A DNA stretch of 64,000 nucleotides, from NCBI GenBank assembly GCA_003020985.1, contig PXRM01000016.1, forward strand, positions 39,246-103,245, written 5' to 3'. Below, one piece after another: positions 58,568 to 63,765 of this stretch. The position numbers and the translations under genes were made by a program. This DNA is from Halobacteriales archaeon QS_4_70_19 (GTDB lineage Archaea; Halobacteriota; Halobacteria; Halobacteriales; Haloarculaceae). A model generated the notes under the pieces. It was not told the origin of the DNA. It did no database searches and worked only from the letters and a program-made list of their open reading frames with translations. Every line of letters begins with the position of its first letter. Position 1 is the first letter of the stretch.

Positions 58568-59143
58568 CTACTCCTTGCGGAACCGCTGGAACAGGATGCG
58601 GTCCTGCTGGGTGTAGACGTGGTAAGTGGCCGACAGCATCAGGATGACGAAGAAGACGGTGGCCGTGACGGTCACGCCGAGCGCCTCGACGCCCGGGACG
58701 CCGTACAGGACGGCGATGGTGGTGAGCGAGCCGAGCAGGCCGAGCCCGAAGTAGAACTCGCCCCAGGAGAGCCCGTAGCGGGGGACGACCTCCATGTACA
58801 CCTCCACCTCGCGGACGCGGTCCTCCAGACGGACGGTCTTGTCGTCAGAGTCGTAGGAGACGATGCCGAACTCCTCCAGCTTCGGGAGGTGGGTCTGGTG
58901 GAGCGATACGTAGACGGACTGGCGCTTGTCGCTCGGCGGAGGGTCCTCTCCCGTCTCGAGCGCGGCGATGGCCTCCGAGAGCTCGCGGAGCTTCATCTCC
59001 CTGTCCTGGCGCTCCTGCAGTGTCTTGATGGTGAGTCGCCGGCGGTCGTTCCGCAGGATGTCATGGATGTCGCTCGGCTCCATCTCCGCCGGTGCCTCGA
59101 CCCCGCCTCCGGGCTCGGAACTGACTGTGCTACCCTCGGACAC
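58568..59143 (-). CDS. HTH and two-helix membrane protein (DUF7344-like)
   Basis: A 191-residue protein. A winged-helix domain (about 22-110, DIHDILRNDRRRLTIKTL ... VSLHQTHLPKLEEFGIV) is followed by two membrane helices (about 125-150 and 155-175) and a short basic tail. The arrangement, cytoplasmic DNA-binding domain plus membrane anchor, is frequent in haloarchaea. Targets unknown. Confidence 0.76.
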   Translation of the reverse strand: MSEGSTVSSEPGGGVEAPAEMEPSDIHDILRNDRRRLTIKTLQERQDREMKLRELSEAIAALETGEDPPPSDKRQSVYVSLHQTHLPKLEEFGIVSYDSDDKTVRLEDRVREVEVYMEVVPRYGLSWGEFYFGLGLLGSLTTIAVLYGVPGVEALGVTVTATVFFVILMLSATYHVYTQQDRILFQRFRKE

Positions 59144-59255: not shown

Positions 59256-62200
59256 TCACGCCAGCCACTCGTCGGGCTTCGTGTCGTAGTCCACGTCCGC
59301 CGCGGCGATGTTCTCCACGTCCTCCCAGGGGAGGTCCTCGATGGTGAACTCCTCGCCGTCGTAGCGGAGGAGCTTGCCCACCTCCTCCGGGTCGGGCTCG
59401 CGGTCGCGCCGGCGCGCAACCTCGATGTCGTGCTCGTCGATCTCCTTGACGATGGTCTTCAGGTTCACCGGGCGACCCCAGAGCTCGAAGACGCGCTCCA
59501 GGGTCTGCTTGGCCTGCTCGATGTCGAGCATCACGCCGTTGTACTGGTGGGCCAGCAGCAGCTCGTTGCGGTTCTCGTAGTTGCCGTCCTCGACGGCGAT
59601 GGTCGGCTTCCCGAAGTTGGTGAACTGCAGCATCAGCTTCTTTTTCACGTCGCGGTAGTCCGTCGACGTGACGCGGTAGTCGCGGGTCGTGTGCGTGTAC
59701 TCGTAGGTGAAGTAGTCGTTGTCGTCGACGAACTCCTGGGTGAGGAACTCGTCGAGGAAGGTCACGTCGTTGTGGGACTCGCGGATCTCCCGCATCCGGT
59801 CCCAGCCCGCGCTGCGGTCGACGTCTCTCACGGCGTCCGCGACCGAGTCGTAGCGGCCCGTGTCGAACTGGTAGCGGGCGATGCGCTCAAGCTCCGACTG
59901 GTTGATACGCTTGAGGAAGCCCCGGAACGCCGGCTTCACGAGCGAGTAGTGCCGCTCGGCCAGCCCCTCGTAGGTCAGGACCTTCCAGGGGTACGTCTCG
60001 ACGTCGAGGTCGCCGTCGCGGGCCCGCTCGAGCGCGTCGGCGTCGACGCGCGGGTCGCCGGGGTCCAGTTCGTCGAGGTGGCCGATAACGTCGACCAGCC
60101 AGGGTTCGGGCTCGAGCAGGTCCCGCACCTCGTCGAGATCGACCGTATCCTCGAAGTTGCGCCAGGTGATGCCGTCGACGCGGAGCAGCTTCTCGACGAC
60201 CTCGCGGCGGTTGGTCGTGTTCTCGACGTAGTTCCAGAGCTGCAGCCCCAGCTTGTAGGGGTTGAGCCCGGGCGAGCCGAGCACCTGGGCCATGTGGTCG
60301 GCGTACGAGAGGAACTCGTCGTCGCCGGCGAACACCTCGCCACTCATCATCTTCGACTCCCAGTAGGAGTTGTGGTTCACGAAACCGGCAGCGGCGTAGC
60401 GGTGTGTCTCCTCGACCGAGATGTCGTACACGTCCGCCGTCCCGGTCTCGATCTCGGCGACCTCGTCCGTCCACGGCTCGTCCTCGAACCAGGCGAGTTC
60501 GTCGAGATACGTCCGGAGCCTGTCAGCCTTCTCCGTGTAGCCGAATCCGATCTCGTCGGCGAACCGCTCGGCCGACCGGCCCGTCAGATGGACGTGGAAG
60601 CAGCCATCCGTCTGCTCCCGCCGGCGACTCAGGATGCCGAAGTTGGTGAGCAGTAGCTGGACCTGCCGGCTCATCTCTTCGCTTTTCGTGCTGAGGATCG
60701 CACCCTGCTCGCCAGCGTAACCGTCAGCATCGAACAGTCCCCGGAGGAACTCGGCGACGACGTTCTCCGGAGAGCGGAGTATCTGTTCCGGGACGATCTT
60801 CCGGGACGCCGCTTTCCCGTTGGGAAGCTCGAAGACCTCGATCAGCAGCTCGACGAGGTGTCCGGAGTAGAGAGAGACCCGCAAGCGCGAGCCCTGTCGT
60901 TCGACCGACGGGTCAATCCCGAACAGCTCCGAAGCGAGTCCGGCGAAATGCTCCGCGTGGACCTCCGATCTCGTCGTAAACCCGACCTGGCCGGTAGCCG
61001 AGGAGACATGGCCGTCTCCGACGAGCAGACCGAGGAGCCGACCGAAGGAGGGACCCACGTCGTCGGGAACGCGAATCGGATTCCGCTGCGAGAGTCGCTG
61101 ATCCTCCCCGCGGTAGCCACGTAACGCCTCCTCGATCGCATCCGCCTCCTCGGCGCGACCAGTGTCCCGATACCGCATGACCGTCCAGACCGAGACCCCG
61201 GCTTCCTCGGCCACGTCATCGAGTGTCTTCGCCGACCGTGGGGACCAGTCGAGTTCGACACGTTCCGCTGGCCAAGTGCCGTTACCCCCCGATACTTCGA
61301 TACGATCGCCACTTTCCAGCTCGTCTAGCCGGACCCACGACCCATCGGGTCGACGGATCCGATGATTGTTCGATCCGGTCAGTTCGAACCCGCGCCGAGT
61401 CCGTAGGGTGACGGTCCCGTGATCCGCGATGACGTTGGAGTCGTACACCTCGCGGAGATCGTCTCCATCCGAGACGCTGTTACGACGCTCGACGACCTCC
61501 TCCATCGGGACGAGTCCGCCCTCGGTGAACACCCGCGTATCCGGGGTCACACAGGCCCACCCCTCGTTCATCACCTTCGTCATCTTCTGTGGGGCGAAGT
61601 AGTAGGCCTCCTTCCGGAGGATCTCCAGCACGTCGCGCTGCCACTCGGTCATCTCCAGGGCCTTCTCCGCGTCCTCGTCGTAGGCCTTCCCGTGGGTCCA
61701 GAGGACGGCGAGGACGTCCTTCTCCGGCTCGGCGGGGAACCGGACCTCCTCGTCGTCCTCCTGGGCCGCCAGCCACTCGTCGTCGAACACCTGCTCCCGG
61801 ACCTCGTCGGAGAGGTCGAGCTCGTCGAGCTTCTCGTCGACGACTTCCGCCTCGGCGTCGTCGCCGTCGCCACCCCGGGTCTCGGCCGGGACGAACGCCC
61901 GGTGCTGGTCGATGTTGTCCTCCAGGCAGAGGACGTGGTCGATCCAGGCCTCGACGGCCTCGCGGTCGATCTCCGGGTCCTCCATGTACTCCCGGATGGT
62001 CTCGGCGTGCCGCTCGAGCATCGCCGCCGCGTCCGGGTCGTTCGCGAACAGGCCGAACCACTCGTTGTTCCTGAAGAAGTCCGAGTGGGCCTCCACGTGC
62101 GTGATGACGGCCTTCTGATCGGCCAGGTCGTTCGACTCCTGGAGGAACGCGTGGGCCGGGTTGTCGTTGTTGACGATCTCGAACGCCTTGCCCCCCATGA

Positions 62201-62432
62201 ACTGGCTCTGCTTCTGCTGGCGGTCGTACTGCATCCCCCAGCGCCAGTGCGGGTACCGGGTCTGGAACCCGCCGTAGGCGATCAGCTCGTTCATGTCGTC
62301 GTAGTCGACGATCCAGTAGTTGACGGGGAACGGCGCCAGCCCGAGCTTCTCGGCGAGGTTCGACGCCTCGCGGACCGGCTCCTCCAGTTCCTCGGCGATG
62401 CGCTGCTGTGTGATGCGGTCGGGCTGGCTCAT
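59256..62432 (-). CDS. SpoVR family protein precursor, containing an intein
   Basis: 1058 residues as translated; removing residues 294-688 leaves a 663-residue SpoVR/YcgB protein. The extein N-part (FPVNYWIVDYDDMNELIAYG, THVEAHSDFFRNNEWF) and the C-part after the intein (SYWESKMM ... NPYKLGLQLW) are typical. The intein splits the conserved NEGWA-SYWE motif, the most constant part of the family. Bacterial YcgB acts with YeaH and the YeaG/PrkA kinase in stress and sporulation-linked processes; molecular activity is unknown. One base separates it from the DUF444 gene upstream, an operon. Confidence 0.9.
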   Translation of the reverse strand: MSQPDRITQQRIAEELEEPVREASNLAEKLGLAPFPVNYWIVDYDDMNELIAYGGFQTRYPHWRWGMQYDRQQKQSQFMGGKAFEIVNNDNPAHAFLQESNDLADQKAVITHVEAHSDFFRNNEWFGLFANDPDAAAMLERHAETIREYMEDPEIDREAVEAWIDHVLCLEDNIDQHRAFVPAETRGGDGDDAEAEVVDEKLDELDLSDEVREQVFDDEWLAAQEDDEEVRFPAEPEKDVLAVLWTHGKAYDEDAEKALEMTEWQRDVLEILRKEAYYFAPQKMTKVMNEGWACVTPDTRVFTEGGLVPMEEVVERRNSVSDGDDLREVYDSNVIADHGTVTLRTRRGFELTGSNNHRIRRPDGSWVRLDELESGDRIEVSGGNGTWPAERVELDWSPRSAKTLDDVAEEAGVSVWTVMRYRDTGRAEEADAIEEALRGYRGEDQRLSQRNPIRVPDDVGPSFGRLLGLLVGDGHVSSATGQVGFTTRSEVHAEHFAGLASELFGIDPSVERQGSRLRVSLYSGHLVELLIEVFELPNGKAASRKIVPEQILRSPENVVAEFLRGLFDADGYAGEQGAILSTKSEEMSRQVQLLLTNFGILSRRREQTDGCFHVHLTGRSAERFADEIGFGYTEKADRLRTYLDELAWFEDEPWTDEVAEIETGTADVYDISVEETHRYAAAGFVNHNSYWESKMMSGEVFAGDDEFLSYADHMAQVLGSPGLNPYKLGLQLWNYVENTTNRREVVEKLLRVDGITWRNFEDTVDLDEVRDLLEPEPWLVDVIGHLDELDPGDPRVDADALERARDGDLDVETYPWKVLTYEGLAERHYSLVKPAFRGFLKRINQSELERIARYQFDTGRYDSVADAVRDVDRSAGWDRMREIRESHNDVTFLDEFLTQEFVDDNDYFTYEYTHTTRDYRVTSTDYRDVKKKLMLQFTNFGKPTIAVEDGNYENRNELLLAHQYNGVMLDIEQAKQTLERVFELWGRPVNLKTIVKEIDEHDIEVARRRDREPDPEEVGKLLRYDGEEFTIEDLPWEDVENIAAADVDYDTKPDEWLA
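60369..61553 (-). mobile_element. SpoVR intein with LAGLIDADG endonuclease and inserted HTH
   Basis: A 395-residue intein (residues 294-688). It starts with Cys (CVTPDTRVFTEGG), shows block B TGSNNHRIRR with its His, and ends FVNHN with downstream Ser. Two LAGLIDADG helices are visible, RLLGLLVGDGHVSS and FLRGLFDADGY. Ahead of them is a helix-turn-helix SAKTLDDVAEEAGVSVWTVM, the type that binds like a DNA-recognition add-on. Base composition is less GC-rich than the flanks. I recall no published SpoVR intein. Confidence 0.92.
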
Positions 62433-62433
62433 G

Positions 62434-63765
62434 TTATGCGGGCACCTCCTCGCGTTGCTCCGTGCTCAGGATCGTGTAGATGGCGTCGACCACGTCCTCC
62501 GCCGAGGACACGTAGGCGACGGCGACGTTCGAGTCGTCGCCGAAGTGCTCCTCCACCTCGTCGGCGTGGGTCGCGTTGATGGCGTTGCCCGACGGTTGCG
62601 TCTCCACGTAGGCGTGCAGGTTCGCGGGAATCTCCTCCATCAGCGGGACGACCCGCTCCTCCGTGTCGTTCGAGGAGTTCTCGCTGTCGCCCGCGGCGAA
62701 CACGTACCGGTTCCAGTCGCTCCAGGGGTAGCGCTCCTCCAGGATCTCGGCCGCCAGGTCGTACGCGCTGGAGATGCGGGTCCCGCCGCCGCTGCGGATG
62801 CCGAAGAACTCCTCGCGCTCGACCTCCCACGCGTCGGCGTCGTGGGCGATGTAGACGAACTCGGCGTTGTCGTACTTCCCCGTGAGGTACCAGTCCAGCG
62901 GGGTGAAGGTTCGCTCGACGAGTTCCCGCTTCTTCTCGCGCATCGAGCCGCTCACGTCGCGGATGTTGACGACGACGACGTTCTTCTCGCGCTCCTCGAT
63001 GATCTCGGGGTAGCGGTACCGCTCGTCCTCGCGGCGGAACGGGACCTCGTCGACCCCCTCCCGCCGGATGCGGGTCGCGGTGGACTCGCGCTCGACGTTG
63101 GCCTCCATCTCCTCGATGCTCGCCCACCGGCTCCGCTCGTCGCGGGGGAGCGCCTCGTAGGCGCTCTCGATCCACGGGCGGGAGACGGGGACGTTCTCGG
63201 CGCGGGCCCACTCGAACACCTTCGCCGGCCCCCAGCCGTCGACCCGCAGGGCCTCCTTCAGGTACTCCTCGTCGAAGTCCATCGCGAGCTTTCGCTTCAG
63301 CCCCTTCTTGAACAGCCGCTCGAAGTCCAGCGTCGAGGCCGGTCCCGAGCGCGTGATGTCCGTGAAGTCGCCCTCCGTCTCCTCGACGACCTTCTTCCCC
63401 TTCGGGTCCAGGTCAAGCCCCAGCTCCTCGTCCAGCTCCTGGGCGAACTCCTCCGGGTCCATCTCGTAGTACTCGTGGTCGCCGCTCTCCTCGCCGGGCT
63501 CGCCCTCCTCGTCGCCGTCGCCCGGCTGTGGCTGGGGTTCGCCGACCGGCTGGCCCACGTCCGGCGTGTCGCCGTCGCCCTGACCCACGCCACCCATGTC
63601 GCGCTGGTCGTAGGCGAACTCCGGCAGGTCGACGATCTTGATGGGGATCTTCACCTCGTCCGGCAACGACTGCCCCATGTCGCCGTACTGGATGAACTCC
63701 GAGAGGTCCTGTCGCTTCTCCTCGCCCACGTCCCGATATCGTTCGAGGTCGTCTTTCAGTCCCAT
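62434..63765 (-). CDS. YeaH/DUF444 (UPF0229) family protein
   Basis: A 443-residue protein. An acidic, Gly/Glu/Gln-rich linker (58-100) follows the N-terminal helix. A von Willebrand-like domain (about 260-440) has the metal motif [20 protein letters not shown], whose DxSxS binds Mg2+. Works with SpoVR and a PrkA-type kinase in bacteria and haloarchaea; the kinase gene is expected just beyond the right end. The gene ends one base before the SpoVR start. Confidence 0.88.

What the first reader, a model, noticed from the sequence alone, without database searches (positions are those of the whole stretch)
60369..61553. Intein inside the conserved NEGWA-SYWE motif of a SpoVR protein
Seen directly: the SpoVR frame is continuous but holds 395 extra residues with Cys1, block B His, two LAGLIDADG helices, terminal HN and a following Ser. 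Established: inteins favour conserved sites in DNA-metabolism proteins; SpoVR is not one, and I recall no SpoVR intein. Inference: this may be an undescribed insertion site, and it would make a stress-linked system depend on splicing.
Basis: partly seen in the sequence, partly recalled or inferred. Interest (0 to 1): 0.8.

Follow-up and report, generated by a model that had tools for sequence, protein, structure and literature searches.

The report
Intein in the SpoVR stress gene
A self-splicing, probably mobile protein insert sits inside a conserved motif of a salt-loving archaeon's stress protein SpoVR, and the same insert turns up at the same spot in scattered archaea and bacteria, apparently bringing with it the serine codon it needs.

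Summary
Window 60369-61553 (-) is a 395-residue in-frame insert in the genome's only detected SpoVR gene (59256-62432, -), between NEGWA and SYWE. It has the sequence marks of a class 1 intein (Cys1, block B His, block F Asp and His, terminal His-Asn, +1 Ser), a LAGLIDADG homing endonuclease with both catalytic Asp, and a small helix-turn-helix. The AlphaFold model (pLDDT 92) matches VMA inteins.

The insert is a recurrent allele: 22 of 391 haloarchaeal genomes searched (plus a fragment in one more), 13 of 282 genomes in a Myxococcota sample, and one planctomycete record, at this SpoVR site in each gene checked. On a SpoVR tree its presence is as scattered as shuffled labels (sampling partly favours this). 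Two congeneric species share identical intein DNA (0/1185) while their exteins differ at 66/1986.

Intein-bearing SpoVRs have Ser at +1 (22/22); intein-free ones mostly have Ala (217 of 314 classified). Some flanking tracts look imported, as if homing brings the serine codon along.

Four term searches found no paper on a SpoVR intein. Splicing and cleavage are untested. This is a new host gene and insertion site for a known kind of element. Regulation by splicing is not supported.

The parts
59256..62432 (-). SpoVR precursor ORF, 1058 aa
   Evidence: only SpoVR found in the genome
61554..62432 (-). N-extein of SpoVR, 293 aa, ending in NEGWA
60369..61553 (-). Intein, 395 aa, Cys1 to His394-Asn395
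61536..61553 (-). Block A, first splicing nucleophile Cys1 (CVTPDT)
   Evidence: Cys1 in 32 of 32 aligned copies
61362..61376 (-). Block B GSNNH
   Evidence: His64 32 of 32, Ser61 31 of 32 with Thr in one
61158..61226 (-). Helix-turn-helix (LacI-like) between the N-terminal splicing half and the endonuclease
   Evidence: Pfam LacI E 0.00024, 21.3 bits, below its cut-off of 27; three predicted helices at residues 111-143; position
61011..61037 (-). First LAGLIDADG motif LLGLLVGDG, Asp180
   Evidence: Asp in 31 of 32
60720..60749 (-). Second LAGLIDADG motif FLRGLFDADG, Asp277
   Evidence: Asp in 31 of 32
60402..60431 (-). Block F VYDISVEETH, Asp377 and His384
   Evidence: both 32 of 32
60369..60374 (-). 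Block G His394-Asn395
   Evidence: 32 of 32
60366..60368 (-). +1 Ser codon TCC, second splicing nucleophile
   Evidence: Ser in the intein-bearing copies checked
59256..60368 (-). C-extein of SpoVR, starting SYWE
62434..63765 (-). Upstream DUF444 (YeaH-like) gene; a PrkA gene lies further upstream on the same contig, outside the window
   Evidence: DUF444 7.1e-114; PrkA C-terminal domain 6.3e-29 at L220:4398-6758 (-)

Best explanation
It is a full-size class 1 intein carrying a LAGLIDADG homing endonuclease, at a SpoVR insertion site that I name the NEGWA|S site. Inferred splicing: after translation Cys1, the +1 Ser and Asn395 carry out self-excision and rejoin NEGWA to SYWE, leaving normal SpoVR. 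Inferred homing: the freed endonuclease cuts intein-free spoVR alleles at the empty site, and repair from the intein-bearing allele copies the intein plus a short flanking tract. That tract can bring the Ser codon the intein needs, replacing Ala, Thr or a differently coded Ser. Shown here: anatomy, same-site recurrence in two domains, a highly scattered presence, identical intein DNA within diverged exteins, and the +1 association. Inferred: the splicing and cutting activities, and homing as the route.
For: Anatomy. Splicing residues kept in 32 of 32 copies and the two endonuclease Asp each in 31 of 32. Model pLDDT 92.1; best PDB matches TliVMA and PhoVMA inteins, then PI-PkoII, PI-PfuI and PI-SceI. 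Same site in the window and all 20 other full-length haloarchaeal copies from the genome search, in all 31 full-length loci from genome contigs, 9 of them bacterial (12 of the 31 have inteins identical to the genome search rows), and in 13 of 13 Myxococcota-sample hits. Scatter: 19 state changes for 21 intein-bearing rows on a 106-row SpoVR tree, against a mean of 19.5 in 200 label shuffles. Recent exchange: 0/1185 intein differences against 66/1986 in exteins between two species of one genus, identical from -36 to +236. Co-conversion: Ser at +1 in 22 of 22 bearers against 60 of 314 classified intein-free genomes; 17 independent pairs, on average 11.6 agreeing, 0 against, 5.4 alike, median p about 0.0005; TCN serine codons 21/21 against 21/60; raised near-site divergence; L016 against L173, 12 differences within -31..+18 out of 38.
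Against: No direct evidence of splicing or DNA cutting. Pfam Intein_splicing is just below its cut-off for the window copy. Block B has Ser where Thr is usual (recalled), although Ser is nearly fixed in this family. Near-site divergence is not raised in every pair (L009 and L011 show 0 of 57), and the p values are modest (0.003 to 0.03 over three cut-offs). The rows of the SpoVR tree were partly chosen near intein carriers, which inflates the scatter. L016 against L173 has a second mismatch cluster further upstream, so recombination other than homing also occurs. No close copy was found in the plasmid, phage or viral-contig collections to serve as vehicle.
Confidence: 0.9

Rival explanations
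1. The intein splices but no longer homes in the window's lineage; it is inherited vertically and its endonuclease is a relic there.
For: The window intein is 71% identical at best to the other copies found and its place among haloarchaeal inteins is unresolved. Two other copies have lost a catalytic Asp.
Against: Both catalytic Asp and full length are kept in the window copy. Other lineages show recent exchange and the family is scattered.
Confidence: 0.15
2. Splicing is conditional (salt, redox or temperature), so the intein acts as a post-translational switch on a stress-linked SpoVR.
For: Host lies beside DUF444 and PrkA genes, a setting linked to stress responses in bacteria (recalled). 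In the unspliced AlphaFold model the extein around the site has low confidence (residues 283-292 and 702-726 under 50), weakly suggesting an unfolded unspliced protein.
Against: Presence is scattered with no visible coupling to host lineage, as for a selfish element. The precursor model has a shallow alignment (20 rows) and pTM 0.49, so it says little.
Confidence: 0.1
3. The insert is not an intein but an extra SpoVR domain that stays in the mature protein.
For: The frame is continuous.
Against: Most haloarchaeal SpoVRs lack it with an intact NEGW-xxxWE site, the splicing residues are invariant in 32 copies, intein profile hits and intein fold.
Confidence: 0.02
4. The Ser(+1) pattern reflects only which alleles tolerate the intein (it survives only in alleles already Ser), not import of Ser with the intein.
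For: 60 intein-free haloarchaea have Ser already, and some carriers sit among Ser relatives (g3, g9).
Against: In genera g6, g19, g20, g30 and g36 the classified intein-free relatives of the carriers are all or mostly Ala or Thr. L016 has Ser TCC where its nearest kin have Ser AGC plus other near-site changes, which amino-acid need alone does not explain.
Confidence: 0.25

Closest known systems
Haloarchaeal MCM inteins, above all MCM-d (PMC10643990; start of abstract, passages and section 15 seen)
   Same: Haloarchaeal intein with homing endonuclease; occupied sites encode Ser at +1, empty ones mostly a non-nucleophile (Pro there, Ala here); co-conversion of the +1 residue proposed.
   Different: Host is the replicative helicase subunit MCM, not SpoVR; homing was studied by experiment there, here it is only inferred. 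'SpoVR' does not occur in that main text.
VMA inteins (TliVMA 7qsu/7qss, PhoVMA 7qst)
   Same: Best structural matches, intein fold plus LAGLIDADG endonuclease.
   Different: 18-20% identity in the structural alignments, different host and site; whether they have a like HTH was not checked.
Haloarchaeal intein set of 2014 (PMC4071816; section 11 with Table 1 and passages seen)
   Same: Patchy, horizontally moving inteins in Halobacteria.
   Different: 24 alleles in 13 genes; none is SpoVR.

Membership tests
Class 1 intein | In-frame insertion absent from most homologues of the host | tested here: met
Class 1 intein | Cys or Ser at position 1 | tested here: met
   Cys in 32 of 32
Class 1 intein | Block B TxxH (recalled form) | tested here: met
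   His 32 of 32; Ser in place of Thr in 31 of 32, a conservative variant
Class 1 intein | Terminal His-Asn and a Cys, Ser or Thr at +1 | tested here: met
Class 1 intein | Curated intein profiles over cut-off | tested here: inconclusive
   TIGR01445 and TIGR01443 pass; Pfam PF14890 just below cut-off
Class 1 intein | Hedgehog/intein fold | tested here: met
   predicted model and Foldseek matches to solved inteins
Class 1 intein | Protein splicing activity | not testable with these tools
   needs expression or proteomics
LAGLIDADG homing endonuclease | Two LAGLIDADG motifs with catalytic acidic residues | tested here: met
   Asp180 and Asp277 in the window; each in 31 of 32
LAGLIDADG homing endonuclease | Cuts the intein-free allele and promotes homing | not testable with these tools
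   indirect signs only
SpoVR protein | SpoVR and SpoVR_C domains in the exteins | tested here: met
   PrkA and DUF444 neighbours

The most novel reading that the evidence does not exclude
Ala at +1 is target-site resistance. It is the commonest +1 residue in the haloarchaeal SpoVRs classified (217 of 314 intein-free) but was absent from the 38 sites matched in 80 Myxococcota-sample genomes (23 Ser, 15 Thr). It would have been favoured because it makes the intein splice-dead on arrival, and the intein beats it by carrying its own Ser codon in the co-converted tract. SpoVR would then be a readable arms race between a mobile intein and its target, running in both archaea and bacteria.
Probability: 0.15. 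Interest if true: 0.75.

Novelty: new member of a known kind. Interest (0 to 1): 0.5.

Why it matters
It adds a stress-linked, non-DNA-metabolism gene to the intein hosts, with the same allele in Archaea and Bacteria. The intein is about 50% identical between the domains where the SpoVR core is only 37.5%, which suggests the intein crossed after the exteins had split. The many intein-free relatives, some with nearly identical exteins, and a clear +1 codon marker make it a good natural system for measuring homing, co-conversion and target resistance. It could also affect annotation, since such genes may be labelled simply as SpoVR or as homing endonucleases (inference, not checked).

Tried and rejected
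A viral or plasmid vehicle: plasmids gave 4 records (28-33% identity, none covering 80% of the query) and phages 10 (21-31%; three Staphylococcus phage DNA polymerases cover 88% at about 24%), so no close copy; in viral contigs 101 pattern matches, none confirmed. A second SpoVR copy without intein in this genome: none found. G323, whose SpoVR hit was split in three, was suspected of another insertion; its hits include a TGA near the N-terminus and it has Ala at +1, no intein at the site. G304 holds an intein-free SpoVR and, on another small contig, an intein-end fragment followed by SKWESLMM; probably a mixed assembly, so not used as polymorphism evidence. The fold of the whole precursor was too uncertain to place the site in the SpoVR structure. 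No solved relative of the N-extein (293 aa searched) was found by sequence; the best E was 0.12. A first near-site test on 17 hand-picked pairs (near/far 1.42 against 0.54 in 201 free-free pairs) was replaced by the nearest-relative test. L015 was dropped from that test because its N-flank is disrupted. Four rows were dropped from the core identity comparison (L068, L075, L084, L086). In the 391-genome class search 351 have SpoVR; by subtraction about 15 of these (351 - 22 - 97 - 217) match neither site pattern nor the intein, and their +1 residue is unknown. That each pattern match lies in SpoVR was not checked one by one; the 217 Ala genomes are a tally, and one search printed sequences for only part of them. 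Other intein-survey papers listed were not opened; two were (PMC4071816, PMC10643990).

Full report
What is there. The minus-strand ORF 59256-62432 is SpoVR (1058 aa) with a 395-residue insert at 60369-61553, between NEGWA and SYWE. The insert frame is open while the other two frames hold 8 and 6 stops. Third-position GC is 0.78 in the insert against 0.98 and 0.96 in the exteins, which fits a later arrival but could also follow from its amino acids. Upstream lie DUF444 and, outside the window, PrkA. No other SpoVR was found in the genome, whose assembly is about 82% complete.

Anatomy. Cys1, block B GSNNH, LLGLLVGDG, FLRGLFDADG, block F VYDISVEETH, terminal HN and +1 Ser are all present (block names recalled). 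Across 32 aligned copies Cys1, His64, Asp377, His384, His394 and Asn395 are invariant; each endonuclease Asp is kept in 31. This is what a homing cycle predicts: splicing is always needed, while the endonuclease may decay. An extra LacI-like helix-turn-helix lies between the first splicing half and the endonuclease (Pfam below cut-off; helices in the model); I infer a role in DNA target recognition. The model (pLDDT 92.1, pTM 0.88) matches TliVMA and PhoVMA inteins best.

Distribution. Of 391 haloarchaeal genomes, 21 including the window's own hold a full-length copy (the 20 others at 62-71% identity to it), one (G034) holds its two ends on two contigs, and one (G304) only a fragment. Many further matches in that search are below 40% identity, look like other inteins or endonucleases, and were not sorted one by one. 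SpoVR is in 351 of 391. All 21 full-length copies sit at the same site, NEGWA or, in two, NEGWS. A GTDB scan found 39 loci: 31 full-length, all at this SpoVR site, of which 9 are bacterial (8 titled Myxococcales, Myxococcaceae or Deltaproteobacteria, 1 Planctomycetota; 45.9-58.0% identity to the window intein); 1 is a contig-end piece in SpoVR, and 7 are weak hits (23-28%) with other flanks. In the phylum sample around one Myxococcales genome, 13 of 282 had it, all at the same site with Ser at +1 (4 of these 13 are the same loci as in the scan).

Between the domains the intein is more alike than its host: 49.7% against 37.5% for gap-free core columns, in 196 of 196 pairs, while within each domain the two are about equal (67.1 against 69.2; 62.0 against 62.9; full alignments, 270 of 270 pairs). 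Haloarchaeal inteins form one supported clade (100/100) in a 48-row tree, with one change between domains; order among the bacterial copies is partly unresolved. The simplest reading is one cross-domain passage, direction unknown.

Mobility. On a tree of 106 haloarchaeal SpoVRs the intein state changes 19 times for 21 carriers, as many as with shuffled labels (mean 19.5, lowest 15 of 200); intein-free rows were partly picked near carriers, so this overstates the scatter. L006 and L007, two species of one genus by group code, have identical intein DNA (0/1185) and identical flanks from -36 to +236, but 66 of 1986 extein bases differ. Conversely two carriers of genus g3 have inteins with saturated synonymous divergence (dS about 3.7) in exteins with dS 0.65, as expected of separate acquisitions.

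The +1 residue. Pattern searches over the same 391 genomes found 97 intein-free sites with a nucleophile codon (60 Ser, 37 Thr, counted by hand) and 217 genomes with Ala; no genome that I compared was in both lists, and the reversed control patterns read 0 in the rows I looked through. Carriers have Ser in 22 of 22 (Fisher 3e-15, which ignores kinship). With kinship handled by independent pairs, 17 pairs give on average 11.6 in the expected direction, 0 against and 5.4 alike (median p 0.0005). Carrier serines are TCN in 21 of 21, free ones in 21 of 60 (4e-8; by pairs on the sampled rows 6.7 of 10, 0 against, median p 0.016, range 0.004-0.06). In bacteria TCN is 16 of 18 in carriers, the planctomycete included, and 12 of 23 in free Myxococcota-sample Ser sites (p 0.018). 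Divergence within 10 codons of the site, the +1 codon left out, is higher between a carrier and its nearest free relative than between free relatives (0.088, n 16, against 0.056, n 77, at far divergence under 0.2; p 0.0097; the other two cut-offs gave 0.033 and 0.0027). L016 (same intein as the Halomicrobium katesii record) against L173 shows it best: 12 of 38 differences lie in -31..+18, including TCC against AGC for the same Ser. L009 and L011 show no such excess (0 of 57 each). The MCM-d intein of haloarchaea shows the same +1 logic with Pro against Ser, and co-conversion was proposed there (PMC10643990, passages and section 15).

Known or new. Searches for SpoVR with intein, intein with stage V sporulation, inteins with PrkA and sporulation, and intein with YcgB gave no papers; Table 1 of PMC4071816 does not list SpoVR. 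Other intein surveys in the listings were not opened. The library lacks most subscription papers, and InBase was not available. I therefore call it a new host and site of a known kind of element, with priority unproven.

Verdict. Real, well supported as a mobile intein, moderately surprising by its host and cross-domain spread. Splicing, cutting and any regulatory role remain to be shown by experiment.

Noticed in passing
L254 (G000:C36) and L256 (G000:C34), outside the window: The same genome carries other intein-like endonuclease domains, among them in an A-type ATP synthase subunit A and a B12-dependent ribonucleotide reductase whose 2408-aa frame gives three separate matches.
   Followed up: partly
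L069 and L090: Two copies of the SpoVR intein have lost a catalytic Asp (position 180 is Gly; position 277 is Glu) but keep the splicing residues checked, as in the decay phase of a homing cycle.
   Followed up: partly
G304, contigs C135 (L026) and C146 (L105, L109): One assembly holds both an intein-free SpoVR and an intein-bearing fragment with a different extein; probably mixed strains or species.
   Followed up: partly
G323 C1:2378362-2378568 (L113): SpoVR hit split near its N-terminus with one TGA inside, possibly a pseudogene or sequencing error.
   Followed up: no
window 58568-59143 (-): Gene downstream of spoVR encodes a DUF7344 protein of unknown function.
   Followed up: no
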